Assembly (NCBI GenBank): GCA_029448655.1
Contig: JACCLO010000055.1
Span: 1 to 64,000 of the forward strand
Direction of reading: 5' to 3'
DNA length: 64,000 nucleotides
DNA from: Wolfiporia cocos
Lineage: Eukaryota; Basidiomycota; Agaricomycetes; Polyporales; Phaeolaceae
Positions 19,694 to 45,378 of this stretch are shown piece by piece. Every line of letters starts with the position of its first letter. Positions within the stretch are counted from its first letter, which is position 1. The notes under the pieces were generated by a model. It was not told the DNA's origin and did no database searches. It worked only from the letters and a program-made list of their open reading frames with translations. The position numbers and the translations under genes are program-made.

Positions 19694-19698
19694 CACAC

Positions 19699-20834: not shown

Positions 20835-20869
20835 CTTGCTGCATCATTAAGACTGACTAGTCTGTGCCA

Positions 20870-22715: not shown

Positions 22716-22738
22716 AAGATTTGCGGTCCCTGCAAAGG

Positions 22739-23470
22739 TTACTCGGTGATCGGTGGTTCGACATCTTGCCACTTGCTCGCTGAGGGCTCCATCAGGCGGT
22801 CCCAATCCTCATAGTCATGAGGGAGTATTTTGACTTCTCCCAAGTGTCTACCAGTATGACCAAAGCCTTTGTCACCACGAGCTGTGTCCTTCAAGTATTG
22901 TTGATTGTACATGTAGGTTGTACTATGGTGGATTTCTGGTTGAGGGACAGGTTGCAGAAGTAATTGTGCTATCTTGTCCCTATGGTTAACCATGTATGGA
23001 TATCCGGTGAAGTTGTAGAGCATGACTATCACTTCTCCACAGTAATCCCAGTCTATGACTCTGCCTTGTACCTGTATGCCCTTCTTCGCCATGCTAGAAT
23101 GTGTCTCCAGTTTGCCGCTGAATCCATAAGGGAATAGGATTCTTAGGTCTGTTTTCACGAGCATGGTGGTGTGAGGGTTTATCCTGGTAGCTTCGGCTGA
23201 GTAGATGTCAAATCCGGTGGCATGTTCAGTGCCTCTTTCTGGATATGTGCCCTGGGGTCCTACTGCGAATTCGAGATATTCGTTGAAGCAAGTGCCTTCT
23301 TCTACGGAGTTGCCGAATTTGTCCCGTACTAACCACTTCCGTACTTTCTTGCATTCTTCCGGAGTAAATTCACCTCTCTGCAGTGGCCAATCATCTGGCC
23401 ATAGATAACAATCCCCAACTTTCCAGTCTGGGTTGTCATCTGGTTCGAATACTTGAATATTGTGGGTGTG
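22739..23470 (-). pseudogene. Ty3-A dUTPase domain (C-terminal to chromodomain)
   Basis: dUTPase hydrolyses dUTP to dUMP and PPi, limiting uracil in newly made DNA. After the TGA at 23471-23473 the same frame continues: a linker with W/D-rich residues (DDNPDWKVGDCYLWPDDWPL), then dUTPase motif 1 HATGFDIYSAEA, a diverged motif 2 (GKLETHSSM in place of GR.APRSG), motif 3 GRVIDWDYCGEV, motif 4 DKIAQLLLQPV and C-terminal motif 5 RGDKGFGHTG, ending WQDVEPPITE at 22739. All five are in order. The lost Arg/Ser pattern of motif 2 makes activity doubtful. It was probably expressed as a Pol fusion before the TGA arose. Confidence 0.85.
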
Positions 23471-26129
23471 TCATCTTCGCGGAGCGGTATGTGCGTTAAG
23501 GGCATGTTCTGCCTTGTATTCGTCTACCAACTCCTTAGTGTTGACGAAGTCATCTTCATATTCCCATGTGTCTTCTCCCATGGAGTACCCTAACCATCGC
23601 ACCAGGAATTGTAGTTTTCCTGAGGGTGTGAATCTGTGGTTGAGTATTTGCTCCACTTCGTATTCTCCTGACTTATCTGGTTCTGGAGCTTCTTCCTTGC
23701 CGGTATATGGTGTTAGCTTTGACGCATGGAAGACCGGGTGATAGGCTCGGTATTGGCCATCCATGTGTAGTCTGAAAGTCACGGGTGACAGTTGTTCGAC
23801 TATTTTGAACGGGCCGATGTACCTGGGGGCCAAACTTCTTTCGGATGTTTGGTAATCCCTTACGTCTATCATAACCTTGTCTCCAACCTTGAAGGGTACT
23901 TTCTGGATCGATTGATTGTAATACCACTTCATACTGTCAGCTGCTAACTGCATTGCGGCTTTGGCTTGCTCCTGAGCGTTCCAACGATCGGTTGCAATTT
24001 CATTAAGGTCTGCTTTTGCCTGAATAGCTAAATCTGCTGGCCCAGCCTTTGGGTGCCTTCCCAACTCGACGTAGAATGGTGACATCTTGGTAGTCTCTGA
24101 CGCTGCGTTGTTGTATGCAAATTCCGCCGTAGGCAGGAATTGAGACCAATTGTCTTTGCAATACGAGTTTACATAGCATCTGAGGTATTGTTCAAGTGTC
24201 TGATTCATTCTTTCCATCTGTCCATCTGCCTGTGGGTGATATGCCATAGTCATGGCATGTTCTATCCCTAGCAGTTTACACCATTCGCCGAATAGTTTGG
24301 ATGCAAACTGCACTCCGTGATCGGAAATGATACGTTTAGGTAGCCCATGTATTGGGTAAAACCTTCTGTATAGGACTCTTACGGGATCCTTTGTTCCGAA
24401 TTTGCTGGAGATGGGGAAGAAGCATGCTCGCTTGGTCAAGCAATTGACTACAACCATGATTCCGTCATACACCTTGTTGTCTATCTTCGACTTGGGTAGG
24501 TACATAATGAAATCCATGGTTATTATCTCCCATGGGGCTTCTGGTACTTCGTTAGGTATCAGGGGTCCATATGGCTTTTGCGGGCGATTCTTCATTTGCT
24601 GGCATGTGTCGCATTCCTGTATGTATTTCTTTACCGAGTTGGTTAGTCCTGGCCACCAGTAATTACGTGAGATGAGTTTGTATGTCTTCCATCTCCCCAT
24701 ATGCCCTGCAGTAGGGTGGTCATGGTGTAATTGTAAGACCTTATTTCTAAGCTCTTCTGGTGCCTTGGGAACGTAGATCTTGTTATGGTACAAGAGTAGA
24801 CCATTCTCGTAGTTCCAGTCTCTGAGAGACTTGCCGAATTCGTGAGGTCCTGACTCCAATAGGCCTTTGTAGTCCTTGGTTACCTCGTTGTCTAGCAATG
24901 CTTTGTGTATTTCTCGTTGGAGTTCGTCATCTGGGATTACCAACTGATGGAGGGGCTCGAACGCAAGGATGGCTAATTCTCGCGCAAAGTTAACAAAAAA
25001 TTCCGGTTTCAACAGAATATTGTTCCTATTGTCGAGTTCCACCCCCTCTTCATGGTCTGGTCTCCTGGACAGAGGGTCTGCAGTAAGCATGGTTTTTCCT
25101 GGTTTATGGTGCATGGAGAAGTTAAATCTTGACAGATATAATGCCCATCTTGTCACAGATCTGACATTTTTCCGCAATTAATTGCCATTTATCCGGTATT
25201 ATTACGCATACCTACGAGTTATCCTGTACTTATCAGTACAAGCCGACATGCCGGTGTAACCTAACAGTTATTACCTAAGCCCAAGAGTGCTTACGCGCTA
25301 CTAAGCATCTATGACACGGCGCTTACACGCTAGTCATCAAGCATGACATGTTACATGACACTCTGTCACAAGACTAGACCTATGGTCTATTCTAACCCAT
25401 GATACCATCATTACAAATAATGATATCATCATGACATCATATGGTCTAGCCCCTGGCTATGACATCACTATGATGTAACCCCTTCGTCATCATTACCAAT
25501 TATGACACCATTGGACCTAGGCCTACAGCCCAGTCCAATCCATAGCACGCCATCATTACACAATAATGGCATCACTATTCTAGACCCATGGTCTAGTACA
25601 TTCCATGACATCATCATTTCCAATCATGACGTCATTATGATCCAGGCCTCCGGCCCGGTAACCATGTATGCGGATCTTCTGATCCATCCCTCGTATCTTA
25701 CTGGCTAAGTCCATTACTGGCTAGCATGGTCACTATAGATACCTATGCATGATGCCTTATCGCATCATTATGATATACGGATGGTGCCATACTGACACCA
25801 TCGCCTTATGCAAGCATATGACTAACACGTTTAGGGTAGGACCATTCCCTTACTTACGTAATCAAGTATAAGCATGTATATAAGATAGGGCTTAACGCCT
25901 TTAGTCGTTAGTTCTGTTCTTCTAGGCGCTGCGCGCCCTAGAAGAACTTCACCTCTCTTCTGCGCGCCTTCTGACTGCTTGCCTGCTTATTCCCCTCACC
26001 TTGTGGATTAGGCGGTGAGTCCCACAGTTAGATCTGTGTCACATCTTGCCTGTCTCCTGGTGAGCTTCTGAGCCGTCTTGAAGTAGGTTAGGTTCAGATG
26101 ATCCGACCATACTTCGAATTTTTCCGGGT
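23471..26129 (-). pseudogene. Ty3-A RNase H end, integrase and chromodomain, split by a solo LTR
   Basis: Coding parts are 26129-26042 ([24 protein letters not shown]) and 25150-23471 (WALYLSRFNFSMHH...). The LTR between them carries a CATCT duplication and the join RRQARWALYLSRF is exact. Integrase features: zinc-binding H-H-C-C (HHDHPTAGHMGRW, ECDTCQQMK), then the DDE triad in TMDFIMYLP, IISDHGVQF and ADGQMERMNQ. The C-terminal GPFKIVEQLSPVTFRLHM core leads to the chromodomain EYEVEQILNHR, QFLVRWLGYSMGEDTWE. The frame ends ALNAHTAPRR-TGA, beyond which it continues into the dUTPase. The chromodomain probably directs integration to histone-marked chromatin, as in other chromoviruses. Confidence 0.92.
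25151..26041 (+). mobile_element. Solo LTR (891 bp), TSD CATCT, in the Ty3-A RNase H
   Basis: Starts TGTCACAGATCTGACATT and ends GTTAGATCTGTGTCA, with CATCT at 25146-25150 and 26042-26046. TATATA at 25877 is followed 33 nt later by AGTTCTGTTCTT (25910-25921), which runs into a long inverted repeat (25916-25947) whose arms are GTTCTTCTAGG and CCTAGAAGAAC. A matching PBS would read AAGAACAGAACT, but the internal region has been lost. Confidence 0.92.
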
Positions 26130-27232
26130 TGTCACAGATTTATCTGGGGCTTACAGCATTTTTCCTACGATTATAGCAATTTACCTGGGATTTATACGTC
26201 TACCTACAAGTTATCTACGGGTTTAACTCCCATTGCCACCACGACAAGCTCTTAACTGGGGCTTATCACCACATGACCAGCTTACATAACGCTACGGCAC
26301 CTTCCGGTCCAATAGCACAGCTACAGCTACGTCATACAGGTCTCGCCCGTCAGAGCAAGACCAGCCACTGTCATAGATCGTTAGATCATAATGATTAGGC
26401 CTGAGCGCGGCACGCTCGCGATAAATAATGTCCACATAGTACAAACAGTGCCTCGCGGCCTTGTACTATTGGGTCGGCCTTCCCGGCTTCCCACCGCCAT
26501 AAGATCCTTGATCACAATGGCACCTCAGGCGCGCCACGCCTTCGCATAATAATGGCAACACGGCCAAATAGCACTATATTAGCATCAAGGCAATATCGCT
26601 ATAGGCTCGGCCTTCTCGGCCATCTCACGGACTCGGCGTTCTCCAAGTCCCGGGCTTCTGCCATCACGGCGCTGCCCAAACACCGGTCCTCGCCTCACGG
26701 CTAAGACCAATACATGCCCCGGTAACCATCCGGACCGGGCTGTAACACATGCCACGGTACTACCCGTCCAATGGCATAACGACCTCGGCGTCTCGCCTTG
26801 GTCATCCAACGAAGCACGGCCAATCGCCATTATGCCGCAAGGTATCCGGCAACCGGCTTCACCTATACCCGGGCTGCGCCCGCGTTAGTATCACAGATAA
26901 GACATAATCCCTCTATTACGATTGGGTCGGCCATTAGGGCCTTCCACGGCCATTCTAGATAGAGTAACTAAACATCAGATAAGATAAAGCTTCGCCACTT
27001 GGCAAAGCCACATAACCCGGTAAGGCAACCGCTAGCTAGTAGCACGTGCCCTCCCGACACAATGTATATAAGTAGGAGCCAAGCGCTCTTTAACTTCAGT
27101 TCTATTCTTCTCGGCGTACGCCGTAGAAGAACCTCCTACCTCCTACTGCGTCTGATAACCTCTTCCTCACCTAAGTCGCCTAGTTCATCGCAGGATACTG
27201 GCTTGGTGAGTCCCACAGAGCCATCTGTGTCA
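26130..27232 (+). mobile_element. LARD LTR 1
   Basis: TGTCACAGATTTATCTGG ... GAGCCATCTGTGTCA. Its first ~325 bp differ from LTR 2 by small indels. From about 26456 onward it is identical to LTR 2 (offset 4957) as read. Confidence 0.92.
27065..27131 (+). promoter_or_regulatory. LARD core promoter, predicted transcript start and R hairpin
   Basis: TATATAAG at 27065 is followed 33 nt later by AGTTCTATTCTT (27098-27109), the predicted 5' end of the RNA. It overlaps an inverted repeat at 27105-27131, arms TTCTTC and GAAGAA, with a GGCGTACGCC palindrome between them. The same block recurs in all four LTRs with little change (LTR 4 has lost one base in the start block). The position of the start is inferred from TATA spacing. 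Confidence 0.7.
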
Positions 27233-27233
27233 T

Positions 27234-27245
27234 AAGAATAGAACT
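27234..27245 (+). promoter_or_regulatory. LARD primer-binding site, self-complementary to the transcript start
   Basis: AAGAATAGAACT begins one base after the LTR. It is the exact reverse complement of AGTTCTATTCTT at 27098-27109, the predicted first 12 nt of the RNA. No TGG (the tRNA-CCA complement) is present at this position. This is the layout of Tf1-type self-priming. The same holds at 32191-32202 and 37154-37165. Confidence 0.75.
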
Positions 27246-30200
27246 ACCTACCCCCCTGCGCCTCCTTAACTGGTGGCGCCTGGGTTTTTCCTCCAACAGG
27301 TGTCTGAGATAGCGCAGGGGCCGCTACTCTCCTGCAAAGGGGATGTATGCTCCGTGGTTGCGGATTGGGATACATCGGCGGCGGGCTTAGCGGCCTGCTG
27401 CCACCCAGTGGGGCGCTGCTTGCCTAATCAGCAGCATGCGTCCTGCGAACCCGGACTCCAGGGTTAAGGAGAGGCGCCGGCTTCCTGACAAGGTTGCTGG
27501 TGCCAGCGGTTGAGACCCGCCTATTGGGAAAAGGGGACCGTCTGCCTGTGTGCGCGCAGCCCCCTGTCTTGGCAATCCCTGTTCAGGGACCCAACACTAC
27601 CAGTAGGATCCCCATAGGGATATGCGCTTCGGCGTATTCCCTTAGTTGGGTGTGGGAATCTTCCAAAGCCGCCCCCCAGGCGTAAGGGGCCCGCTTGGGA
27701 TCTCCTTCGGGGAATCCAAGTGGTGAGGTGGTGCGGCTCGCAAGGCCAAACCAGCCGAGGTCACTCGCGGTAGCCAATAGCGTAAGTCCTACGGGCAGCT
27801 CGGTGTGCGAGCCTGGGTTAAACCGAGTTGGGGCCCCACCGGAAGCATGCGGCGTTGCCCACCATCCTTGATGTGTGGAGCGCTCGTGAATGCGCGATCT
27901 TAGATCGACGGATGGTTTTTTAGCCCTGATGTGACACCCAGGTGGCTATAGATGGCAAGCCTTACCACTAAAGCGCGGACCGGTCGCGGTGTAATACTGC
28001 GACCACTTTCCAGCTCATCTCCACGAGGAAATGGGCTGTGTATCCTATTCCCAACCATGTGACCCAGCTTATCAAGCGCTGGCAGTCACCGACTCTCTTT
28101 CTAGAAGGAAGTCGCGCGCTTCGATGAAGACACCTGTCGGCTAAATTCCGCGCGGCGTCCTGACAAGGGCGCCCCTAACCATGCCCCCGTTCTTCTTGTG
28201 TTAGACATGACCACTCAGCGTTGATCGCTGATGATGAGCTCTCTTTCAGGTACCCTGGTATCCCAGTCAATAAGTAGATAAATATGTAGTTTTAGTGGCG
28301 GCTCCTAGTAGCTTACTTACTTTGTAAAGTAGCTTAGAAACCGTCCAATAGCATTTGTATTCGCCTCTGGAAATCCTGCGTCACCTGCTGGTTCCCAGGT
28401 TATCTAGCCTGGTTAAGGTCGCTTATGTACATATAAAGCAACCTTTTACGTCTTAGGTACAATAAGTCAATCGAAAAACGATACTAGTACCTTACTCGAC
28501 GTAGGATCGCGTACGCTTGGCAAACATATGCTTATAACTATTATTACTATGGGAATGCCTAAGTACCAAGTCGATTAAGATTCCCATTAATCTATCGCGC
28601 CCGTTTGACTTCGGTCTTCGCTCCTGAAAAAGGGGATTCGGGTTATTGAGCTTAGTCCTTTGGTTCCATGTCATAAGAACCTTAGAACGGGGCACCCCTT
28701 CGGTAATGGAATCTCCTGACAAGGAAATTACCATCCGTTTGGGAAGAGACGTCTGACAAGCGTCTATAATAATTGGGTACAGCGCTGTTTCCACCAGCCA
28801 CCCATGTACAAACAGATCGCAATAGATTACTTAATTGAATCTTGCAATCTGGTTAGAGGAAAGGAAAACAAGGGACACATCGCTATTGATACGCAGTTCC
28901 CTTGAAGTGTAGCGGAGGTCGTCAAGACTTCCGAATCACACTTCATTCGGCTTTCGCACATCGCCGAATCTACACAGGTTTCCAACCGGTCCCCCCCCGA
29001 ATTGAAATCGACAATTTCGCACGCCAATCGCAAAATTCGTCACGAGGACTAGCTACCTCACTTTGATTTCACTTCGATTCAACTTTTCTCTGTGGGGAGA
29101 ATAACCGAATTCGAAAATACACCTTAGCAACTCAATGCGATCGTCCGCAAAAGGTCTCGAAGAAGCACTCGAAACTTCCAGAGATAACAAAGGGAGCCCC
29201 CCTTATTAGACAATCAAGCCGATTTGGCAATCGGTTTATCATCTAATTGCTTGGTTTACGGAACCTACAGCCTGTCGAGACGCGTAATAAATAAATCCGG
29301 ATCTGTATCCTTACGTCAAGACAAGGATTACATCTCGTCACTCCATCGAATATGGGCCTGGAAAACCCTTCGATTCCGACAACTAGGGCTTGGAAACCTT
29401 AGTATAAAAATCTGGTCGCATATGCGAGGACTACTGGATACAGCCGTATATGGATATACGTCAAGAATACCTTCGGCCCACATCCACCCACCCTTATCTG
29501 GGGTATAGAGGCGGTTTAACCTCTTTAAAAAACCAAAACCAACGGATAGGTTGATCGGGAGATCAAACGTGAAAGAGGGGGTGGAAAACCCTAATTCGCC
29601 ACCTAGGACTGTAAAACAAGTCCACTATCCCACGCTTACAACGTACCTTACGTCTTGAAAGCAAACAACGACATGCACTAAGAGGCCTGATTACCCTCAT
29701 TCATGCTCGTACTGTCCTACTTCTATATGGACCAACAACCTGTAATAGGAATATAGTAGCTATCTATCCAATAGCGAAATACTATCCCTCCCCAACGTTC
29801 ATCCAGTTCCCACGCTTACAATGTCATACTCAATCGAAGAAACGACTTTAACGACATACAAGCACATGGAAACTACCGTCATCGCACCACGTGGACTTCA
29901 GCCCTTACGGATATACCTCTACGAGACAACTCCTGACAAGGATGTATGTTCTCACGGTTAAACCATAAGGCCTCACTACCGCAACGACACTACAGTATAG
30001 GGAATACAATCATAAGCATTGACCATAATGCACAATGATTAGTACTATACTATGGGGTTTTACACGAGAAGCCTACGGTTAATAAATAGTGCATACAACA
30101 ACGAAGGCACAGCTTCATTCCGGAACTTACGACTCCGAAGAGATCGCTACTTAAAGCAATCTAACTAGGGGACACAACCCCTGTAACAAATGGGCATTGA

Positions 30201-31080
30201 CAAATGTCACACGCTTAGTACTTGCGATACTAGGGAGCGACGCCTCATAAACCGTCATAAGGCCGACGTCCTTTAATAACCGTTCAAACCGCATAAGTCG
30301 TACAAAGTAGGATTACCCCTGTACAAGCACAAAGCCTAAGACACCCGCCACGCGAACTGAAGGAACTTGCAATCCCATTCACCGCTAGCATAGACGTCGA
30401 AAAAGCACCGCTATGTACACTCATGGGTACTACGCATAAGCAACATATCCGCCCAAGGGCTCGAAGAGACACTAGAAAATCTCCAGAGCTAACAGTGAAG
30501 CCCTCACTTAAGGGAATATCCGCACAATGCTATCCGAAAAACTGTACCACGACACATATGCACCCTCTAATACGCTTGGCAAGCTATTGGAGTATAGATT
30601 TACTAGTAGACTCAAAGGCACTATATGATGAATCATTTCCATATCGCCTTCTACTACGAGTAACGTCATAAGCAAAAGCAACAATCCGACAAAGGTCGCG
30701 AAAAGGCACTAGAACACCTTCAGCGATAACAGGAAGCCCTCCTTCCTTAGGATCCGCGTGCACAATGACAATACACTCTAGTAACAAGACTATCATTCCC
30801 TAACAACGGCATTTGACCTTTCGGTCATCACGCGTTGATAATCGCTAGTAACGGCATTTAGCACCTTTCGCTATCACCGCGTTACAAATCACATAAGGAC
30901 TAAAAATCGCTATCCCATACGCTCAGGCTCCACTACAAAGTCCTGTAAACCTCATCTTATCCCTGTCATACAACATACAGTATGGCAGCACAGCCTAACG
31001 GTATTTGACACTTCGTCATCACGCGTCGCACCGCTCTTGGGACGATAAGATGAATCAGTTTCACCAGGACGGTGAAAACT

Positions 31081-31093
31081 AAAGCGGGGGTAA
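31081..31093 (+). promoter_or_regulatory. LARD polypurine tract
   Basis: AAAGCGGGGGTAA directly precedes LTR 2. The equivalents precede LTR 3 (AAAGCGGTGGTA) and LTR 4 (AAAGCGGGGGTAA). Confidence 0.75.
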
Positions 31094-32189
31094 TGTCACA
31101 GATTTATCTGGGCTTACAGCATTTTTCCTATGATTATAGCAATTACCTGGGATTTATACGTCTAACCTACAAGTTATCTACGGGTTAACTCCCATTGCCA
31201 CCACGACAAGCTCTTAACTGGGCTTATCAACCACATGACTAGCTTACGTAACGCTACGGTACAACCTCGGTCCAATAGCAACACTACAGCATACGTCATA
31301 CAGGTCTCGCCCGTCAGAGCAAGACCAGCCACGGCATAGAGCCTAGATCAAAATGATAGGCCGAGCGCGGCACGCTCGCATAATAATGTCCACATGTACA
31401 AACAGTGCCTCGCGGCCTTGTACTATTGGGTCGGCCTTCCCGGCTTCCCACCGCCATAAGATCCTTGATCACAATGGCACCTCAGGCGCGCCACGCCTTC
31501 GCATAATAATGGCAACACGGCCAAATAGCACTATATTAGCATCAAGGCAATATCGCTATAGGCTCGGCCTTCTCGGCCATCTCACGGACTCGGCGTTCTC
31601 CAAGTCCCGGGCTTCTGCCATCACGGCGCTGCCCAAACACCGGTCCTCGCCTCACGGCTAAGACCAATACATGCCCCGGTAACCATCCGGACCGGGCTGT
31701 AACACATGCCACGGTACTACCCGTCCAATGGCATAACGACCTCGGCGTCTCGCCTTGGTCATCCAACGAAGCACGGCCAATCGCCATTATGCCGCAAGGT
31801 ATCCGGCAACCGGCTTCACCTATACCCGGGCTGCGCCCGCGTTAGTATCACAGATAAGACATAATCCCTCTATTACGATTGGGTCGGCCATTAGGGCCTT
31901 CCACGGCCATTCTAGATAGAGTAACTAAACATCAGATAAGATAAAGCTTCGCCACTTGGCAAAGCCACATAACCCGGTAAGGCAACCGCTAGCTAGTAGC
32001 ACGTGCCCTCCCGACACAATGTATATAAGTAGGAGCCAAGCGCTCTTTAACTTCAGTTCTATTCTTCTCGGCGTACGCCGTAGAAGAACCTCCTACCTCC
32101 TACTGCGTCTGATAACCTCTTCCTCACCTAAGTCGCCTAGTTCATCGCAGGATACTGGCTTGGTGAGTCCCACAGAGCCATCTGTGTCA
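31094..32189 (+). mobile_element. LARD LTR 2
   Basis: Same termini as LTR 1. It differs from LTR 1 mainly in the first ~320 bp and is identical over the rest as read. Confidence 0.92.
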
Positions 32190-35100
32190 TAAGAATAGAA
32201 CTACCTACCCCCCTGCGCCTCCTTAACTGGTGGCGCCTGGGTTTTTCCTCCAACAGGTGTCTGAGATAGCGCAGGGGCCGCTACTCTCCTGCAAAGGGGA
32301 TGTATGCTCCGTGGTTGCGGATTGGGATACATCGGCGGCGGGCTTAGCGGCCTGCTGCCACCCAGTGGGGCGCTGCTTGCCTAATCAGCAGCATGCGTCC
32401 TGCGAACCCGGACTCCAGGGTTAAGGAGAGGCGCCGGCTTCCTGACAAGGTTGCTGGTGCCAGCGGTTGAGACCCGCCTATTGGGAAAAGGGGACCGTCT
32501 GCCTGTGTGCGCGCAGCCCCCTGTCTTGGCAATCCCTGTTCAGGGACCCAACACTACCAGTAGGATCCCCATAGGGATATGCGCTTCGGCGTATTCCCTT
32601 AGTTGGGTGTGGGAATCTTCCAAAGCCGCCCCCCAGGCGTAAGGGGCCCGCTTGGGATCTCCTTCGGGGAATCCAAGTGGTGAGGTGGTGCGGCTCGCAA
32701 GGCCAAACCAGCCGAGGTCACTCGCGGTAGCCAATAGCGTAAGTCCTACGGGCAGCTCGGTGTGCGAGCCTGGGTTAAACCGAGTTGGGGCCCCACCGGA
32801 AGCATGCGGCGTTGCCCACCATCCTTGATGTGTGGAGCGCTCGTGAATGCGCGATCTTAGATCGACGGATGGTTTTTTAGCCCTGATGTGACACCCAGGT
32901 GGCTATAGATGGCAAGCCTTACCACTAAAGCGCGGACCGGTCGCGGTGTAATACTGCGACCACTTTCCAGCTCATCTCCACGAGGAAATGGGCTGTGTAT
33001 CCTATTCCCAACCATGTGACCCAGCTTATCAAGCGCTGGCAGTCACCGACTCTCTTTCTAGAAGGAAGTCGCGCGCTTCGATGAAGACACCTGTCGGCTA
33101 AATTCCGCGCGGCGTCCTGACAAGGGCGCCCCTAACCATGCCCCCGTTCTTCTTGTGTTAGACATGACCACTCAGCGTTGATCGCTGATGATGAGCTCTC
33201 TTTCAGGTACCCTGGTATCCCAGTCAATAAGTAGATAAATATGTAGTTTTAGTGGCGGCTCCTAGTAGCTTACTTACTTTGTAAAGTAGCTTAGAAACCG
33301 TCCAATAGCATTTGTATTCGCCTCTGGAAATCCTGCGTCACCTGCTGGTTCCCAGGTTATCTAGCCTGGTTAAGGTCGCTTATGTACATATAAAGCAACC
33401 TTTTACGTCTTAGGTACAATAAGTCAATCGAAAAACGATACTAGTACCTTACTCGACGTAGGATCGCGTACGCTTGGCAAACATATGCTTATAACTATTA
33501 TTACTATGGGAATGCCTAAGTACCAAGTCGATTAAGATTCTTAATCTATCGGCGCCCGTTTGACTTCGGTCTTCGCTCCTGAAAAGGGGATTCGGGTTAT
33601 TGAGCATCTGTCATTTGGTCACATGTCACAAAGAACCTTAGAACGGGGGCACCCCTTTTGGTAATGGAATTCCTGACAAGGAAATTACCATCCGATTGGG
33701 AAGAGACGTCTGACAAGCGTCTATAAATAATTGGGTACAGCGCTGTTTCCACCAGCCACCCATGTACAAACAGATCGCAACAAGATTACTTCATTGAATC
33801 TTGCAATCTGGGTTAGAGGAAAGGAAAACAAGGGACACACGCTATTAATACGCGTTCCCTTGAAGTGTAGCGGAGGCCGCAAGGCTTCTAGAATCACACT
33901 TCATTCGGCATTCTCGCACAATCGCCGAATCTACACCGGTTTCCAACCGGTCCCCCCCTGTATTGAAGTCGACAATTTCGCACGCCAATCGCAAAATTCG
34001 TCACGAGGCTAGCTACCTCACTTTTGATTTCACTTCGATTCAACTTTTCTCTGTGGGGAGAATAACCGAATTCGAAAAATACACCTTAGCAACTCAATGC
34101 GATCGTCCGCAAAAGGTCTCGAAGAAGCACTCGAAAACTTCCAGAGATAACAAGGGAGTCCCCCTTATTAATTCAATCAAGCCGATTTGGCAATCGGTTA
34201 TCATTTAATTGCTTGGTTTACGGAAACCTACGCCGTCGAGACGCGTAATAAATAAATCCGGATCTGTATCCTTACGTCAAGAAAGGATTACATCTCGTCA
34301 CTACATCGAATATGGGCCTGGAAAACCCTTCGATTCCGACAAACTAGGGCTTGGAAACCTTAGTATAAAAATCTGGTCGCATATGCGAGCGACTACACTG
34401 GATACAGCCGTATATGGATATACGTCAAGAATACCTTCGGCCCACATCCACCCACCCTTATCTGGGTATAGAGGCGGTTTAACCTCTTTAAAAACCAAAA
34501 CCATCTGGATAGGTTTGATCGGGAGATCAAACGTGAAAGAGGGGGTGGAAACCCTAATTTCGCACCTAGGACCTTAACAAGTCCACTATCCCACGCTTAC
34601 AAATGAACCTTACGGTCATTAAAGCAACAAACGACATGCACTAAGAGGCCCGATTACCCTCATTCATGCTCGTACTGTCCTATTCGTATATGGACGACAA
34701 CCCTGTAATAGGAATATAGTAGCTATCTATCCAATAGCGAAATATACCCTTCCCCAACGATCATCCCAGTTCCCACGCTTACAATGTCATACTCAATCGA
34801 AGAACGACTTTAACGACATACAAGCACATTGGAAACTACCGTCATCGCCACCATGGGACTTCAGCCCTTACGGGATACACCTATACGAGACAACTCCTGA
34901 CAAGGATGTATGTTCTCACGGTTACCCAATAAGGCCTCACTACGGCAACGACACTACAGTATCAGGGAATACAATCATAAGCATTGACCATAATGCACAA
35001 TGATTAGTACTTATACTATGGGGTTTTACACGAGAAGCCTACTCGTTAATAAATAAGTGCATACAACAACGAAGGCACAGCTTCATTCCGGAACTTACGA

Positions 35101-36053
35101 CTCCGAAGAGATCGCTACGTAGAAGCAATCTAACTAGGGGACACAACCCCTGTAACAAATGGGCATTGACAAATGTCACACGCTTAGTACTTGCGATACT
35201 AGGGAGGCGACGCCTCATAAACGTTCATAAGGCGACGCCCTTTAATAACCGTTCAAACCGCATAAGTCGTACAAAGTAGGATTACCCCTGTACAAGCACA
35301 AAGCCTAAGACACCCGCCACGCGAACGAAGGAACTTGCAATCCCATTCACCGCTAGGCAATAGACGTCGAAAAAGCACCGCTATGTCACACTCAATGGGT
35401 ACTACGCATAAGCAACATATCCGCCCAAGGGCTCGAAGAGACACTAGAAAATCTCCAGAGCTAACAGTGAAGCCCTCACTCTAAGGAATATCGCACAATG
35501 CTATCCGAAATACGTACAACGACACAATGCACCCTCTAATACGCTTGGCAAGCTATTGGAGATACAGATTACAAGTAGATTCAAAGGCACTATATGATGA
35601 CCATTTCCATATCGCCTTCTACTACGAGTAACGTCATAAGCAAAAGCAATAATCCGACCAAGGTCGCGAAAAGGCACTAGAACACCTTCAGCGATAACAG
35701 GAGAGTCCCTCCTCTTAGGATCCGCATGCACAATGACAGCACACTCTAGTAACACGACTACATCTCCCTAACAACGGCATTTGACCTTTCGGTCATCACG
35801 CGTTGATAATCGCTAGTAACGGCATTTAGCACTTCGCTATCACGCGTTACAAATCACTATAAGGAATAAAATCGCCTTCCACGCTCAGGTTCCACCACAA
35901 GTCCTGAAACTCCCATTTATCCCTGTTCAATTGACAAATTGAAGCAGCACCATAACGGCATTTGACACTTCGTCATCACGCGTTATACCGCTCTTGGGAC
36001 GTACACAATGAGGAATAGTTCATCAGGGACGATGAAACCCTAAAGCGGTGGTA
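32190..36053 (+). mobile_element. LARD internal region 2 (non-coding)
   Basis: Identical to internal region 1 up to about 33533 (equivalent to 28576). Beyond that it is closer to internal region 3 than to region 1, with scattered indels. It carries the same PBS, module repeats and polypurine tract. Confidence 0.85.
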
Positions 36054-37152
36054 TGTCACAGATTTATCTGGGGCTTACAGCATTTTTCCTACGATTATAG
36101 CAATTTACCTGGGATTTATACGTCTACCTACAAGTTATCTACGGGTTAACTCCCATTGTCACCATGACAAGCTCTTAACTGGGCTTATCAACCACATGAC
36201 CTAGCTTACGTAACGCTACGGTACAACTCACGGTCCAATAGCAACACTACAGCTACGTCATACAGGTCTCGCCCGTCAGAGCAAGACCAGCCACGTCATA
36301 GATCCTAGATCATAATGATAGGCCGAGCGCGGCACGCTCGCATAATAATGTCCACATGTACAAACAGTGCCTCGCGGCCTTGTACTATTGGGTCGGCCTT
36401 CCCGGCTTCCCACCGCCATAAGATCCTTGATCACAATGGCACCTCAGGCGCGACACGCCTTCGCATAATTATGTCAACACGACCATACAGCACTATAATA
36501 GCACCAAGGCTATATCGCTATAGGTCACGGCCTTCTCGGCCTCCCACGGACTCGGTGTTCTCCAAGTCCCGGGCTTCTGCCATCACGGCGTTGCCCAAAC
36601 ACCGGACCTCGCCTCATGGCTAAGTCCAATACATGCCCCGGTAACCATCCGGTCCGGGCTGTAACACATGCCACGGTACTTCCCGTCCAATGGCATAACG
36701 ACCTCGGCTCCTCGCCTTGGTCATCACACGAAGACCGGCCAATTGCCATTATACCGCAAGGTATCCGGCAACCGGCTTCCCATATACCCGCGCTGCGCCC
36801 GCGTTCATATGATAACATACACAAATCCCTCTCCTACGATTGGTGCGGCCATTAGGGCCCATCACGGCCATTGTAGATAGAGTCCATAAACAACAGATAA
36901 GATAGCGCTTCGCCTCTTGGCAAAGCCACATAACCCGGAATGGTAGTACTAGCTAGTAGCACGTGCCATCCCCATAAAACATGTATATAAAGTAGGAGCC
37001 AAGCGCTCTTTAACTTTAGTTCTATTCTTCTCGGCGTACGCCGTAGAAGAACCTCCTACCTCCTATGGTGTCTGATAACCTCTTCCTCACCTAAGTCGCC
37101 TAGTTCATCGCAGGATACTGGCTTGGTGAGTCCCACAGAGCCATCTGTGTCA
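36054..37152 (+). mobile_element. LARD LTR 3
   Basis: Same termini and core. It carries its own set of substitutions in the 36460-36960 stretch (for example GACCATACAGCACTATAATAG), so it is the most diverged of the first three LTRs and shows that the array is not entirely recent. Confidence 0.9.
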
Positions 37153-40100
37153 TAAGAATAGAACTACCTACCCCCCTGCGCCTCCTTAACTGGTGGCGCC
37201 TGGGTTTTTCCTCCAACAGGTGTCTGAGATAGCGCAGGGGCCGCTACTCTCCTGCAAAGGGGATGTATGCTCCGTGGTTGCGGATATGGGATACATCGGC
37301 GGTGGGCTTAGCGGCCTGCTGCCACCCAGTGGGGCGCTGCTTGCCTAATCAGCAGCATGCGTCCTGCGAACCCGGACTCCAGGGTTAAGGAGAGACGGCT
37401 GCTTCCTGGCAAGGTTGCGGCTGTCAGCGGTTGAGACCCGCCTATTGGGAAAAGGGGACCGTCTGCCTGTGTGCGCGCAGCCCCCTGTCTTGGCAATCCC
37501 TGTTCAGGGACCCAACACTACCAGTAGGATCCCCATAGGGATATGCGCTTCGGCGTATTCCTTTAGTTGGGTGTGGGAATCTTCCAAAGCCGCCCCCCAG
37601 GCGTAAGGGGCCCGCTTGGGATCTCCTTCGGGGAATCCAAGTGGTGAGGTGGTGCGACTCGCAAGGTCAAACCAGCCGAGGTCACTCGCGGTAGCCAATA
37701 GCGTAAGTCCTACGGGCAGCTCGGTGTGCGAGCCTGGGTAAAACGGATTTGGGGCCCCACCGGAAGCATACGGCGTTGCCCACCATCTTTGATGTGTGGA
37801 GCGCTCGTGAATGCGCGATCTTAGATCGACGGATGGTTTTTTAGCCCTGATGTGACACCCAGGTGGCTATAGATGGCAAGCCTTACCACTAAAGCGTGGA
37901 CAGGTCGCGGTGAAATACTGCGACCACTTTCCAGCTCATCTCCGCGAGGAAATGGGCTGTGTATCCTATTCCCAACCATGTGACCCAGCCTATCAAGCGC
38001 TGGCAGTCACCGACTCTCTTCTAGAAGGAAGTCGCGCGCTTCGATGAAGACACCTGTCGGCTAAATTCCGCGCGGCGTCCTGATAAGGGCGCCTCTAACC
38101 ATGCCCCCGTTCTTCTTGTGTTAGACATGACCACTCAGTGTTGATCGCTGATGACGAGCTCTCTTTCAGGTACCCTGGTATCCCAGTCCATAAGTAGATA
38201 AATATGTAGTTTTAGTGGCGGCTCCTAGTAGCTTACTTACCTTGTAAAGTAGCTTAGAAACCGTCCAATAGCATTTGTATTCGCCTTTGGAAATCCTGCG
38301 TCACCTGCTGGTTCCCAGGTTATCTAGCCTGGTTAAGGTCGCTTATGTACATAAAAAGCAACCTTTACGTCTTACGGGTACACTTAGTCAATCGAAGAAC
38401 GATACTAGTACCTGTTCCCTTAGACGTAGGATCGCGTACGCTTGGCAAATATATGCTTATAACTATTATTACTATGGGAATGCCTAAGTACCAAGTCGAT
38501 TAGGATTCACATAATCCGTCGGCGCCCGTTTGACTTCGGTCTTCGCTCCTGAAAAGGGGATTCGGGTTATTGAGCATCTGTCATCTGGTCACATGTCATA
38601 AGAACCTTTGAACGGGGGCACCCCTTTCGGTAATGGAATTCCTGACAAGGAAATTACCGTCCGTTTGGGAAGAGACGTCTGACAAGCGTCTATAAATAAT
38701 TGGGTACAGCGCTGTTTCCACCAGCCACCCATGTACAAACAGATCACAACAAGATTACTTCATTGAATCTTGCAATCTGGGTTAGAGGAAAGGAAAACAA
38801 GGGACACACGCTATTGATACGCGTTCCCTTGAAGTGTAGCGGAGGCCGAAAGGCTTCTAGAATCACACTTCATTCGGCATTCTCGCACAATCGCCGAATT
38901 CACAACCGGTTCCAACCGGTTCCCCCCCCCCTGTATTGAAATCGACAATTTCGCACGCCAATCGCAAAATTCGTCACGAGGCTAGCTACCTCACTTTTAA
39001 TTTCACTTCGATTCAACTTTTCTCTGTGGGGAGAATAACCGAATTCGAAAAATACACCTTAGCAACTCAATGCGATCGTCCGCAAAAGGTCTCGAAGAAG
39101 CACTCGAAAACTTCCAGAGATAACAAGGGAATCCCCCTTATTAGGACAATCAAGCCGATTTGGCAATCGGTTATCATTTAATTGCTTGGTTTACGGAAAC
39201 CTACGCCGTCGAGACGCGTAATAAATAAATCCGGATCTGTATCCTTACGCCAAGAAAGGATTACATCTCGTCACTACATCGAATATGGGCCTAGGAAACC
39301 CTTCGATTCCGACAAACTAGGGCTTGGAAACCTTAGTATAAAAATCTGGTCGCATATGCGAGCGACTACTGGATACAGCCGTATATGGATATATGACAAA
39401 TAATACCTTCGGCCCACATCCACCCACCCTTATCTGGGTATAGAGGCGGTTTAACCTCTTTAAAAACCAAAACCATCTGGATAGGTTCGATCGGGAGATC
39501 AAACGTGAAAGAGGGGGTGGAAACCCTAATTTCGCACCTAGGACCTTAACAAGTCCACTATCCCACGCTTACAACAGTACCTTACGGTCTTGAAAGCACC
39601 AAACGACATGCACTAAGAGGCCTGATTACCCTCATTCATGCTCGTACTGTCCTATTCGTATATGGACGACAACCCTGTAATAGGAATATAGTAGCTATCT
39701 ATCCAATAGCGAAATATATCCTTCCCCAACGATCATCTCAGTTCCCACGCTTACAATGTCATACTTAATCGAACAACGACTTTAACGACATACAAGCACA
39801 TTGGAAACTACCGTCATCGCCACCACGTGACTTCAGCCCTTACGGGATACACCTATACGAGACAACTCCTGACAAGGATGTATGTTCTCACGGTTACCCA
39901 ATAAGGCCTCACTACGGCAACGACACTACAGTATTAGGGAATACAATCATAAGCATTGACCATAATGCACAATGATTAGTACCTATACTAGGGGTTTTAC
40001 ACGAGAAGCCTACTCGTTAATAAATAGTGCATACAACAACGAAGGCACAGCTTCATTCCGGAACTTACGACTCCGAAGAGATCGCTACTTAGAAGCAATC

Positions 40101-41032
40101 TAACTAGGGGACACAACCCCTGTAACAAATGGGCATTGACAAATGTCACACGCTTAGTACTTGCGATACTAGGGAGGCGACGCCTCATAAACGTTCATAA
40201 GGCGACGTCCTTTAATAACCGTTCAACCGCATAAGTCGTACAAAGTAGGATTACCCCTGTACAAGCACAAAGCCTAAGACACCCGCCACGCGAATGAAGG
40301 AACTTGCAATCCCATTCACCGCTAGGCAATAGACATCGAAAAAGCACCGCTATGTTACACTCAATGGGTACTACGCATAAGCAACATATCCGCCCAAGGG
40401 CTCGAAGAGACACTAGAAAATCTCCAGAGCTAACAGTGAAGCCCTCACTCTAAGGAATATCGCACAATGCTTATCCGAAATACGTACAACGACACAATGC
40501 ACCCTCTAATACGCTTGGCAAGCTATTGGAGATACAAATTACTAGTAGACTTCAAAGGCACTATATGATGAACATTTCCATATCGCCTTCTACTACGAGT
40601 AACGTCATAAGCAAAAGCAACAATCCGACAAAGGTCGCGAAAAGGCACTTGAACACCTTCAGCGATAACAGGAGAGTCCCTCCTTCTAGGATCCGCGTGC
40701 ACAATGACAATACACTCTAGTAACACGACTACACTTCCCTAACAACGGCATTTGACCTCTCGGTCATCACGCGTTGATAATCGCTAGTAACGGCATTTAG
40801 CACTTCGCTATCACGCGTTACAAATCACTATAAGGAATAAAATCGCTATCCCATTCAACGCTCAGGTTCCACTACAAAGTCCTGAAACTCCCATCTATCC
40901 CTGTTCAATTGACAAATTGAAGCAGCACCATAACGGCATTTGACACTTCGTCATCACGCGTTATACCGCTCTTGGGACGTACACAATGAGGAATAGTTTC
41001 ATCAGGGACGATGAAACCTAAAGCGGGGGTAA
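37153..41032 (+). mobile_element. LARD internal region 3 (non-coding)
   Basis: 3.88 kb, very similar to internal region 2, with the same PBS, repeats and polypurine tract. Point differences occur throughout. Confidence 0.85.
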
Positions 41033-42133
41033 TGTCACAGATTTATCTGGGGCTTACAGCATTTTTCCTACGATTATAGCAATTTACCTGGGATTTATAC
41101 GTCTAACTACAAGTTATCTACGGGTTAACTCCCATTGCCACCACGACAAGCTCTTAACTGGGCTTATCAACCACATGACCTAGCTTACATAACGCTACGG
41201 CACCTTCCGGTCCAATAGCATAGTACAGCTACGTCATACAGGTCTCGCCCGTCAGAGCAAGACCAGCCACGTCATAGATCCTAGATCATAATGATAGGCC
41301 GAGCGCGGCACGCTCGCATAATAATGTCCACATGTACAAACAGTGCCTCGCGGCCTTGTACTATTGGGTCGGCCTTCCCGGCTTCCCACCGCCATAAGAT
41401 CCTTGATCACAATGGCACCTCAGGCGCGCCACGCCTTCGCATAATAATGGCAACACGGCCAATACAGCACTATATTAGCATCAAGGCAATATCGCTATAG
41501 GCTCACGGCCTTCTCGGCCTCTCCACGGACTCGGCGTTCTCCAAGTCCCGGGCTTCTGCCATCACGGCGCTTGCCCAAACACCGGTCCTCGCCTCACGGC
41601 TAAGACCAATACATGCCCCGGAATCCCTCCGGACCGGGCTCTAACACATGCCAAGTTAATACCCTTCCAATTTCATAACGACCTCGGCGTCTCTCCTGGG
41701 TAATCCAACGAAGCACGGCCAATCTCCATTATGCCGCAATGTATCCGGCAACCGGCTTCACCTATACCCGGGCTGCGCCCCGCGTTAGTATCACAGATAA
41801 GACATAATCCCCTCTATACGATTGGGTCTGCCATTAGGGCCTTCCACGGCCATTCTAGATAGAGTAACTAAACATCAGATAAGTAAGCTTCGCCACTGGC
41901 AAAGCCACATAACCCGGTAAGGCAACCGCTAGCTAGTAGCACGTGCCCTCCCGATACACATGTACTATAAGTAGGAGCCAAGCGCTATTTAACTTCAGTC
42001 TATTCTTCTCGGCGTACGCCGTAGAAGAACCTTCCTACCTCCTCCGCGTCGTCTGATAACCTCTTCCTCACCTAGTCGCCTAGTTCATCGCAAGGATATT
42101 GGCTTGGTGAGTCCCACAGAGCCATCTGTGTCA
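41033..42133 (+). mobile_element. LARD LTR 4 (terminal)
   Basis: Ends CATCTGTGTCA followed by the CGGGT duplication. The 41600-42080 part has an unusual cluster of substitutions and 1-2 bp indels relative to LTRs 1 and 2, which could be real divergence or base-calling errors at the edge of the repeat. Confidence 0.9.
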
Positions 42134-43138
42134 CGGGTGACCTTCGAGATAATGTTGCCATTCTTCTAATGCTCGAATTATGGCTAGCATCTCTTTGTCA
42201 TAAATTTTGTAGTTCCGTTCCGGGGCAGTCATGCCTGTGGAATAGAAGGCGCAAGGATTCCATTTCCAACTATCTGGTGACCATTGCGTTAGGACTGCTC
42301 CAGTCGCAAAGTCTGATGTGTTGGCTTCTATACGGAATTTCTGAATTTTGTCCGGAATATGTAAGATGGGGGCAGTTGTAAAGGCCGCCTTGAGCTTTTG
42401 GAAAGCTTCTTCCTGTGCTTCATCCCAATGCCATTTCTCCGACTTCTTCATGAGTGTTGTCAGGGGTTTCACAATTTTCAAGAAGTCCTGAATAAACCGC
42501 CGATAGAAGTTCGCAAAGCCTAAAAAGGCTTGAACTTCCTTCACCTTGGTTGGGGTCAGCCAATCTAATACTCCTGATAGTTTCGAGGGGTCCATTTCGA
42601 CTCTGCCCTTAGAAATTATCATACCCAAATAGTCGATGCTACTTTTTTCAAAGAAGCATTTCTCGGGTTTGGCATATAGATCATTGTCCCGCAGCCTTTT
42701 CAGGACTGCCTTGGTGATTTTGCGGTGTTCCGCTAAGTCGTTGCCAAAGATCAGTATGTCGTCCAGATAGACTATGACTTTCTCGGTGGCAATGAAATCC
42801 TTTAGGACGTCGTTCATCATTGCTTGGAAAGTCCCTGGCACGTTCTTGAAACCGAAATACATAACCATGGCTTCGTACAACCCCTGTTTAGTAATGAATG
42901 CTGTTTTCCATTCATCACCTTCCTTGATACGGACGTTGTTGTAACCCCATCTCAGGTCGATCTTAGTAAAGATCGATGCACCTGAGAGTTGGTTGATAAG
43001 GTCCGATATCTGGGGTATAGGGTACTTGTTATCCACAGTTATTTCGTTCAGCTTCCTGTAATTGATTACCATGCACAAGGTTCCATCTTTCTTGGCAACG
43101 AAAAATACTGGGCTGGCCATAGGGGAGCTTGAATCTCA
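42134..43138 (-). pseudogene. Ty3-A reverse transcriptase and RNase H (N-terminal part)
   Basis: Minus strand. RT opens MASPVFFVAKKDGTLCMVIN; the catalytic YLDDILIF is at about 42775-42750; FLGFANFYRRF and the tether follow; RNase H begins FRIEANTSDFATGAVLTQ. Here the usual first Asp-containing ETDAS motif reads EANTS, a likely loss of a catalytic residue. It is cut after YLEGHP by the LARD array and resumes at 26129. An in-frame TGA (43136-43138) lies just upstream, in what is normally GYIR.S.SPMASP; the codon may originally have been CGA. Confidence 0.92.
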
Positions 43139-43172
43139 GATGTAGCCTTTTCGCTTTTCTTCAGCGATCCAG

Positions 43173-44070
43173 TCACGGAGGGAATTCTTCCTTTGGCAAG
43201 AGGGAATATGGTTTGGCCAGTGTTGGCAATGGAGTGCCTTCGATTAAATTGATGGCATGATCATATGGCTTACGTGTTGGCATCCTTTCGGATGCTTTTT
43301 GCGAAAATACCATTGGGCCGAATTCCCAATATTCCTTAGGCACAAGCTGCTTCCATTTTTCGGTTGCAGCTTCTGGTCTGTTCTGGTGGATTTCTCCTAC
43401 CATTCCCATGAGGAGTCCCAATTCCTCATTGGACAGGGTACCGATCCACTTGATAAATGGATCATCAGGGTTTCCATCTCCAATCGTGTCTAGCGCAGAA
43501 TCCCAAATGTTGCTGATGTTATTATTGTCCTCTTCGTCATCGGGTGCAACTTCTTCCGAATCAGGGGACGATTCTGAGGCTTCTGGGCATGCAGACCCAC
43601 ATCGATATACCAGACTGCCAGAGTTCCAGTCCATAGTGGGGTTATGTTTAATTAACCAGTCATATCCTAGGATAAGGTCGTGGTTGTGGATTTTCATGAT
43701 GGTAAGGAATACCTTTCCTTGTGCTCGCCATGTTGCATGAATCCTTTAACTGACTTATTGATGAGACCATTTTGTTGTATGATCCATCTGCATTATGAAT
43801 CCAAAAAGGGTCTTTCTTATCGTGGGTGACTAGACGATGTTTGTCAACAAAGTCTGAGTTGATGACTGATAACGTTGCTCCACTATCGATTAAAGCCAAG
43901 CCTTGCACTTTCTGACCATAGACCCACAAGTCAACCCAGATCTGGAAAGATCGGGACTTATCACATGCATGATTCTTGTAATAGTGATATAAATTTTCAC
44001 AATTTTTTACAAGCAGGTCAGCAGTACAGGCAACTATACTAGTACACAGCACACATAGGCAAGGATTCAC
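43173..44070 (-). pseudogene. Ty3-A aspartic protease and linker
   Basis: Two overlapping frames. 44070-43660 contains the protease active site LALIDSGATLSVINSDFVDK. 43697-43173 contains the downstream HDLILGYDWLIKHNPTMDW, an acidic linker (EEVAPDDEEDNNN), and the pre-RT segment PYDHAINLIEGTPLPTLAKP. The frame change at about 43690 and another near 43180 (KEE to SLRDWIAEEKRKGYI) are mutations or, for the first, possibly a frameshift site. No second dUTPase is seen here, unlike Ty3-B. Confidence 0.85.
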
Positions 44071-44458
44071 ATGTGCTGAAGGCGAAAATTCGACTCGCTA
44101 GCTGGATGGTCAGGAGTTTTCTGGGCAACTGAATGCCAGGGGATAAGGGTAGATACCCAATTCGGTGGCTGACCAATTGGGGCTGTTGATGGAGCCGGTG
44201 TACTGGCCAGTGGTTCCTCTACCTCCGTGATGCGCACGGATGAATGGGCGGTGGAGTTGCCCATGGAGTTGTCACTGTCATCTGGGATCCACATCTCTGT
44301 TGTGGTGACCTGGACCATGTGACCTTTGCCATGAGGTGTGGGGGGGTTGCCGCTAGTAGATTTCTGAGCCCCCTTATTGTCCACCTTGGATGCTGGCACC
44401 CTCCAATTGCATCACCCCTCCATGTTTGTGCAGTCCTTCCGGCCGCAGCTCTTGCATG
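44067..44458 (-). pseudogene. Ty3-A gag C-terminus with zinc-knuckle remnant
   Basis: Next to the TRIM, one frame reads CKSCGRKDCTNMEG, a degraded CCHC zinc knuckle. Downstream is a Ser/Thr/Pro-rich stretch (VDNKGAQKSTSGNPPTP...). The rest of gag is missing beyond 44459. Confidence 0.65.
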
Positions 44459-45378
44459 TGTCACAGATAATGCGAAAGCATAATATCATAGACGTTACGG
44501 AGCAATAACTAGGGTACATTACCCGTACGTGGCGCCGGCATACATGGCCTACACCATAGAGTGTCTAATAGGCGCCGAGCGTGGGAATATGAACTGCAGA
44601 TATAGCTGGACCCTCGATAGCAGCATGAGCTGTTATCGTAGCCCTTTTGGGGGAGTGGCTATTATGCCACTCATAAGCACGTTGCATTGGGTCCGCAGCG
44701 CGTCTTGTGATATAATAACAGCTCACCCGGTCGCCGGTTCGAACCTGGGTGGTGGCAAATATTTCCACTGCCTGGGGCGCTTCCGAACCACTGGCGGCTG
44801 AGGGAAAAGTACCCACCACGTGACCCCCTGTATCATGGGGCCCCTCTATAACCGTAAGGTATCAGGGGATAAGATTGGTCAAAGCTTGCGTGGTAAAAAC
44901 TACTATTAAATAGCCTTAACCCGCACCCAAAATCCAGGGTGTAAGTCGGGCCTTCAAGAGGTTGGCACACACGTCATAAGCCAAATGGTATAAGGGATTG
45001 GGGGTACCCTTCACCAGGCACAATGACAAAGCATAGTAGAAGTGATACTTAGTACCGGGGGCGGCTTGATGCAGCCTAAGTTATCTCCTTAACCAGAGAC
45101 GGTTAATCCTTGAAGTGGGGGTAATGTCACAGATAATGCGAAAGCATAATATCATAGACGTTACGGAGCAATAACTAGGGTACATTACCCGTACGTGGCG
45201 CCGGCATACATGGCCTACACCATAGAGTGTCTAATAGGCGCCGAGCGTGGGAATATGAACTGCAGATATAGCTGGACCCTCGATAGCAGCATGAGCTGTT
45301 ATCGTAGCCCTTTTGGGGGAGTGGCTATTATGCCACTCATAAGCACGTTGCATTGGGTCCGCAGCGCGTCTTGTGATA
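44459..45378 (+). mobile_element. TRIM with identical 254-bp LTRs, no target duplication
   Basis: LTRs at 44459-44712 and 45125-45378 are identical as read. They start TGTCACAGATAATGCG and end GCGTCTTGTGATA. A 412-bp internal region ends in the polypurine tract GAAGTGGGGGTAA. It encodes nothing. Just after LTR 1 is a CCGGTTCGAACCTGG palindrome that resembles a tRNA T-loop. The flanks (GCATG left, AGTTA right) do not match, although young LTRs normally keep their duplication. Recombination between two TRIM copies, with loss of the Ty3-A 5' end, would explain it. Confidence 0.85.

What the first reader, a model, noticed from the sequence alone, without database searches (positions are those of the whole stretch)
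26130..42133. A 16-kb head-to-tail array of a non-coding LTR element formed at one integration site
Four LTRs and three complete internal regions, all in one orientation, are enclosed by a single 5-bp duplication (CGGGT). The disrupted Ty3-A frame is restored exactly on removal. Known LTR integration gives LTR-internal-LTR; this LTR-int-LTR-int-LTR-int-LTR form needs later unequal exchange or conversion between copies, or integration of a concatemer. LTR 3 and LTR 4 carry private changes, so at least part of the array is old enough to have diverged. Tandem LTR elements sharing LTRs are seldom described in fungi.
Basis: partly seen in the sequence, partly recalled or inferred. Interest (0 to 1): 0.8.

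Follow-up and report, generated by a model that had tools for sequence, protein, structure and literature searches.

The report
Variable-length tandem LTR-element array in mushroom
A non-coding mobile element in a mushroom genome sits as three head-to-tail copies at one insertion site; many repeats of the same stretch carry one, two or three copies there, which fits a known but poorly understood way in which such elements grow in place, although the exact count read in this stretch may be unreliable.

Summary
The array is in the sequence as described: four LTRs, three internals, one orientation, one CGGGT duplication. But the window is one copy of a 67-78 kb macro-repeat (insertion junctions on 47 of 76 contigs), and the site is an allelic series. 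Of 37 closed arrays, 24 hold one unit (LTR-internal-LTR), 4 two, 7 three, 2 odd lengths; none is a solo LTR, and no empty site matched. A second three-unit array (TSD GTAAT) lies on a 5.3-Mb contig, so tandem formation recurs in this family. Both arrays mix lineages: unit 3 here shares an exact 2,406-bp tract with an element on another contig, though no other contig showed that unit. Many private changes in this contig's array look like residual PacBio noise (indels per mismatch 0.32-0.53 in divergent units, 0.10-0.12 between dispersed copies), so they cannot date it, and the count of three in C51 needs spanning reads. The element is non-coding and carries a Tf1-type self-priming signature. 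Tandem LTR structures are known from plants, yeast and Drosophila; this is a basidiomycete member with an unusually rich allelic series in one genome. Unequal exchange versus cDNA recombination stays open.

The parts
26125..26129 (.). target-site duplication CGGGT, left copy
26130..27232 (+). LTR 1 (1,103 bp)
   Evidence: 98.7% to the type-A LTR of single-unit alleles
27098..27109 (+). predicted transcript start of LTR 1 (AGTTCTATTCTT), 12-nt complement of the PBS
   Evidence: prediction from sequence only
27233..31093 (+). internal region 1; type A to about unit position 2,400, then divergent and noisy; PBS at 27234-27245, PPT side at 31081-31093
31094..32189 (+). LTR 2 (1,096 bp), shared; predicted transcript start 32055-32066
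32190..36053 (+). internal region 2; no mismatch to the single-unit allele of C65 except near its end; PBS at 32191-32202
36054..37152 (+). LTR 3 (1,099 bp), shared, C34-like lineage; predicted transcript start 37018-37029
36233..38638 (+). exact 2,406-bp tract shared with the element at C34:2045603-2060053
37153..41032 (+). internal region 3; PBS at 37154-37165, PPT side at 41020-41032
41033..42133 (+). LTR 4 (1,101 bp); 4% from type A, largely with an error-like profile
42134..42138 (.). target-site duplication CGGGT, right copy
42131..43120 (-). host Ty3-A: reverse transcriptase and RNase H up to the insertion
23471..25177 (-). host Ty3-A: integrase and chromodomain
1..64000 (.). one copy (most of it) of the 67-78 kb macro-repeat

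Best explanation
One non-coding, self-priming LTR element with Ty3-type features integrated once (5-bp TSD) into an already degenerate Ty3 copy. That stretch is now part of a 67-78 kb segment repeated many times, in tandem at least where it reaches contig C7. At this site the number of LTR-internal units then changed in place by homologous recombination through the 1.1-kb LTRs, giving alleles with 1, 2, 3 and odd unit numbers, and some arrays took in sequence of other family copies. Shown: single TSD, a series of array lengths at identical junctions, a second array elsewhere, mosaic tracts. Inferred: the order of events, that exchange ran through the LTRs, and whether the partner was a sister repeat, a dispersed copy or a cDNA. 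The three-unit array of this contig is one allele; its inner letters, and possibly its unit count, are limited by the PacBio consensus.
For: 37 closed arrays at the same junctions: 24 one-unit, 4 two-unit, 1 of 12,889, 7 three-unit, 1 of 17,826 bp. Single-unit alleles C65, C26, C73 have identical units; both LTRs are identical in C65 and C26, and all three LTRs of two-unit C49 are identical. A clean three-unit array at C1:4741023-4757011 with GTAAT on both sides, its last LTR a mosaic. Exact 2,406-bp tract of unit 3 shared with C34. Macro-repeat. Self-primer; no Pfam in 8 of 8 frames.
Against: Unequal exchange should leave solo LTRs; 0 of 37 closed arrays is one, and no empty site matched. The C34-like unit appears in this contig only among the 42 matches shown, which a chimeric join would also give. 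The inner parts of C51, C52 and C59 arrays are noisy. Contigs may be redundant, so counts are places, not independent alleles.
Confidence: 0.7

Rival explanations
1. Plain unequal exchange only: mispaired LTRs of sister or neighbouring macro-repeat copies duplicate a unit and leave a solo LTR on the other product; no foreign sequence is needed, and the mosaic is assembly error.
For: Identical units in C49 and in units 1-2 of C1; the macro-repeat offers many mispairing partners.
Against: 0 solo LTRs in 37 closed arrays. On the 5.3-Mb contig C1 the last LTR and the last 68 bp of unit 3 are of another lineage than units 1-2, with few gaps; unit 3 here is C34-like.
Confidence: 0.3
2. cDNA recombination (Tf2/Ty1-like): new units are added when self-primed cDNA recombines with the LTRs of the resident element instead of being integrated, so arrays grow without reciprocal loss and take in other lineages.
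For: Gains without solo LTRs; mixed lineages; self-priming signature as in Tf1-type elements; for Tf2 this route is reported as the main one (PMC7175516, passages).
Against: No expression or cDNA evidence; gene conversion from dispersed copies would look alike; the single-unit and C49 arrays show no foreign sequence.
Confidence: 0.3
3. The extra units of C51 are an assembly artefact: reads of about 14 kb cannot span 16 kb, and the assembler joined noisy or foreign reads inside a shorter array.
For: Noise profile in the inner array of C51, C52 and C59; mean read length about 14 kb from the published figures; the C34-like unit is seen in this contig only.
Against: Clean two-unit C49 (11,009 bp) and the C1 array; 12 of the 36 other closed arrays also exceed one unit.
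Confidence: 0.2
4. Integration of a ready-made concatemer (read-through tandem RNA or circular DNA).
For: A single TSD around the whole array; proposed for TRIMs and rice tandems (PMC7215508 and PMC11899658, Discussions read).
Against: Reverse transcription should make the outermost LTRs identical; at C1 they differ at 28 sites. Most closed arrays here are single units with, where read (C65, C26), identical LTRs.
Confidence: 0.07

Closest known systems
Tandem LTR-retrotransposon structures of rice and other plants (TLI1, TLI2; PMC11899658; abstract, passages, sections 9 and 13 read)
   Same: Shared inner LTRs, one orientation, one TSD around the whole, insertion inside another transposon, unit number varies between haplotypes (tandem, single, solo LTR)
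   Different: Fungal, non-coding, self-priming element; the series lies within one genome in a macro-repeat; no solo LTR seen in 37 closed arrays
Cassandra TRIM arrays and BARE1 three-LTR structures (PMC7215508; passages and Discussion read)
   Same: Non-autonomous (Cassandra) elements in tandem with alternating LTR and internal region
   Different: Cassandra is very short and carries 5S sequence; here 1.1-kb LTRs and 3.9-kb internals
Tf2 of S. pombe and Ty1 of S. cerevisiae: entry of cDNA by homologous recombination (PMC7175516 and PMC5911963, passages read)
   Same: Fungal LTR elements for which homologous recombination of cDNA with resident copies is reported; Tf1-type self-priming arrangement
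   Different: cDNA route not shown here; element is non-coding and in a basidiomycete
LARD-type large non-autonomous LTR elements (definition recalled, named in PMC7215508)
   Same: Long LTRs and a long non-coding internal region with PBS and PPT
   Different: Self-primer instead of a tRNA site; autonomous partner not established, although Ty3-A shares the PPT-LTR start (3 mismatches)

Membership tests
tandem LTR-retrotransposon structure | alternating LTRs and internals in one orientation, inner LTRs shared | tested here: met
   also C1
tandem LTR-retrotransposon structure | one TSD around the whole array | tested here: met
   CGGGT, GTAAT at C1
tandem LTR-retrotransposon structure | unit number varies between alleles | tested here: met
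   (37 closed arrays); contigs, not reads
tandem LTR-retrotransposon structure | confirmed by spanning reads | not testable with these tools
   no reads held
Tf1-type self-priming LTR element | PBS complementary to the 5' end of the transcript | tested here: inconclusive
   12-nt match 33 nt after the start of TATATAAG, kept in the A, C34 and C1 lineages, 0 of 2,000 shuffles reach 12; the transcript start itself is predicted, not mapped
Tf2-like cDNA recombination | entry of cDNA into resident copies by homologous recombination | not testable with these tools
   only indirect signs
non-autonomous (LARD-like) LTR element | LTR, PBS and PPT present, no coding capacity | tested here: met
non-autonomous (LARD-like) LTR element | mobilised by an autonomous partner | not tested
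   Ty3-A shares the PPT-LTR start with 3 mismatches; no further test

The most novel reading that the evidence does not exclude
A non-coding self-priming LTR element grows in place by repeated cDNA recombination, a one-way ratchet that adds units of other lineages without solo-LTR loss, and does so inside a macro-repeat, so that one haploid genome holds a series of array states of a single insertion.
Probability: 0.22. Interest if true: 0.65.

Novelty: new member of a known kind. Interest (0 to 1): 0.42.

Why it matters
How tandem LTR elements arise is left undecided in the 2025 rice study (PMC11899658, Discussion read). Here dozens of copies of one insertion with the same junctions lie in one assembly, with different unit numbers and lineage markers. 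Long reads of this material could separate unequal exchange (solo LTRs expected) from cDNA recombination (gains only, foreign units). It also warns that consensus noise inside repeats can imitate old divergence.

Tried and rejected
Age from LTR 1 against LTR 4 was rejected: much of the difference has an error profile, while outside the array C51 and C65 differ by only 39 mismatches and 59 gaps over about 63 kb. Separate nested insertions were rejected: no TSD at the inner LTRs. An rDNA or mitochondrial origin of the macro-repeat was rejected: no Rfam match at gathering threshold in the window or the rest of C51, no tRNA in the ten sources scanned. A source for the unit-1 patch was sought: among the 41 matches shown none but itself is above 93%, and the 93% one is a 900-bp piece. 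Sharing of patch variants with other copies (8-42% for eight units or LTRs, 68% of 19 sites for unit 2, 90% for unit 3; controls 28% and 39%) is above what random error would give and so speaks against pure noise; I weighed it against the indel ratio and conclude noise over a real mosaic. C2:3.158-3.168 Mb, first taken for an array, is not resolved. A 3,049-bp piece of C1 unit 3 could not be fetched.

Full report
What was checked. The window holds four LTRs and three internals in one orientation between two copies of CGGGT. Each LTR is about 1.1 kb with ends TGTCACAGAT and ATCTGTGTCA. Unit lengths are 4,964, 4,960 and 4,979 bp. The longest stop-to-stop frame overlapping unit 2 is 126 aa, and 8 of 8 tested frames had no Pfam match up to E 0.1. 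The host is a Ty3-type chromodomain element on the minus strand.

Where it lies. The window is part of contig C51 (79,348 bp) of a 64.43-Mb genome in 76 contigs. An AMP-binding frame of the window is 95% identical to a protein of Wolfiporia cocos MD-104 SS10. Assembly size, longest contig seen (C1, 5,289,744 bp) and telomere repeat fit the published W. hoelen SS20 assembly: 64.44 Mb, 78 contigs, longest 5.29 Mb, (CCCCTAA)n (PMC9503964, abstract, passages and sections 8 and 15; PMC11354754, passages). That this is SS20 is my inference. SS20 was assembled with Falcon from 1,497,235 PacBio reads (21.02 G, thus about 14 kb on average), and 22 contigs (58.26 Mb) were anchored.

The window is one copy of a macro-repeat. 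C51 aligns with C65 (67,068 bp) over its whole length in circularly permuted order, and the start of C51 matches again at its position 76,998 onwards. Left junctions in one contig are 67,069 bp apart in C26, 68,150 in C22, 78,017 in C24 and 77,990 in C21 (recomputed). C7 (1,265,936 bp) begins inside the repeat, covers more than one period, leaves it between 92.4 and 100.0 kb, and ends in (TTAGGGG)n. So there at least the repeat is chromosomal. A 1.5-kb marker was matched at 100% in all 40 scored places, of 66 candidates. Insertion junctions lie on 47 of 76 contigs. Contigs may be redundant samples of the same copies, so the true copy number is unknown. The published k-mer estimate for SS20, 70.2-77.3 Mb, exceeds the assembly, which fits unresolved repeats.

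The site is an allelic series. Patterns across the two junctions (up to 3 mismatches) gave 43 left and 50 right places. Of the 43 left junctions, 37 close with a right junction on the same contig and 6 are open; 13 right junctions have no partner. The 37 closed arrays are 24 single units (6,046-6,096 bp, 15 of them exactly 6,053), 4 of two units (11,007-11,111), one of 12,889, 7 of three units (15,867-16,055, this window among them) and one of 17,826 bp. C54 is a further three-unit array of 15,994 bp by flank similarity, outside the 37 because its left junction did not match. None of the 37 is a solo LTR, and a flank-to-flank pattern had no match at up to 3 mismatches. The units of C65, C26 and C73 are identical; the two LTRs are identical in C65 and in C26, and all three LTRs of two-unit C49 are identical.

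A second array elsewhere. On C1 the family forms LTR-internal-LTR-internal-LTR-internal-LTR from 4,741,023 to 4,757,011 with GTAAT on both sides. The part read is 99.97% identical to itself when shifted by one unit, over 6.8 kb; 3,049 bp of the third unit were not read. LTRs 1-3 differ by 0-1 mismatches; the fourth differs from the first at 28 sites, all within alignment columns 121-580, and is nearer type A than the first is (136 against 164 mismatches). The last 68 bp of unit 3 also differ from units 1-2. Among 41 exact 5'-type LTR ends on 12 other contigs, 34 have a complete internal region and 3 are shared LTRs: two in this array and one at C3 near 43 kb. These come from the first 100 printed places; two listed places on C56 were left out because the second list ended before it, so this is a lower bound.

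Mosaic and noise. Against type A, unit 2 here is clean except its first 200-300 and last roughly 100 bp; unit 1 is type A to position about 2,400 and then departs by 8-9%; unit 3 differs by about 4% throughout. Unit 3 with LTR 3 shares an exact 2,406-bp tract with a single element on C34; among the 42 matches shown, no other macro-repeat contig has this type above 93%, so a chimeric join is not excluded. In unit 1 here, three units of C52 and one of C59, indels per mismatch are 0.32-0.53, against 0.10-0.12 between C1, C34, C67 copies and type A and 0.13 for unit 3; the LTRs of these arrays give 0.19-0.37, unit 2 gives 0.42 on 19 mismatches, and unit 3 against C34 gives 0.27 on 15. The patches show garbled short runs. 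At sites where two other copies agree against type A they nevertheless carry runs of one state or the other, and 8-42% of their differences recur in other copies (controls 28% and 39%). So a real mosaic lies beneath the noise. The private changes cannot date the array, and the count of three in C51 needs spanning reads; multi-unit arrays as such rest on the clean C49 and C1 arrays.

How it may work. The LTR holds TATATAAG, and 33 nt after the start of that box (type A and C1; 34 in the C34 lineage) lies AGTTCTATTCTT. This 12-mer is the exact complement of AAGAATAGAACT one base after the LTR. The pair is kept in the A, C34 and C1 lineages, and 0 of 2,000 mononucleotide shuffles of the LTR reach 12 (best 11, once). 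This is the arrangement expected of Tf1-type self-priming (mechanism mentioned in PMC2864245 and PMC10085805, passages). The coding Ty3 element at 51.3-59.7 kb has an 11-nt pair of the same kind. After one insertion, recombination through LTRs changed unit number. Plain unequal exchange explains identical units but not the foreign lineage, nor the lack of solo LTRs. cDNA recombination, reported as the main route for Tf2 (PMC7175516, passages) and possible for Ty1 (PMC5911963, passages), explains both but is not shown.

Comparison with the literature. Tandem LTR structures with one TSD and variable unit number are described in rice and other plants, with the mechanism left open (PMC11899658; abstract, passages, sections 9 and 13); that paper also mentions Drosophila, kangaroo and yeast cases. 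Cassandra arrays and BARE1 structures are described in PMC7215508 (passages and Discussion). Multimeric Ty arrays are the title of a 1990 paper seen only in a reference list. Searches for fungal cases listed no basidiomycete report among the titles and abstract openings shown; this is limited to the open library searched.

Noticed in passing
whole window; insertion junctions on 47 of 76 contigs: A 67-78 kb macro-repeat with host-gene fragments (for example an AMP-binding frame at 5189-6124), reaching chromosomal sequence in contig C7; copy number unknown.
   Followed up: partly
window 51291-59739: A Ty3-type element with gag, dUTPase, RT, RNase H, integrase and chromodomain, 708-bp LTRs 99.3% identical, and an 11-nt self-primer pair.
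   Followed up: partly
G000:C31 and C37: Arrays longer by about 1.86-1.88 kb than whole numbers of units (17,826 and 12,889 bp); unexplained.
   Followed up: no
G000:C28 near 44.8-48.7 kb: An extra element of the same family at another place of the macro-repeat; marker-to-junction distances also differ in C24, C26 and C7.
   Followed up: no
G000:C34 2045603-2060053: Single element with LTRs 99.9% identical, TSD CCGCC, carrying another LTR element (711-bp LTRs) inside its internal region.
   Followed up: partly
window 44459-44712 and 45125-45378: A 254-bp exact direct duplication 666 bp apart, right of the array.
   Followed up: no
genome-wide: The PPT with LTR start occurs 569 times (up to 2 mismatches) but the LTR end with PBS only 142 times: a larger set of elements, Ty3-A among them with 3 mismatches, shares these ends.
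   Followed up: no
window 25178-26040: The left flank loses the host reading frame and holds a fragment similar to the family's LTR promoter region (25874-25964, + strand); probably another old insertion in Ty3-A.
   Followed up: no
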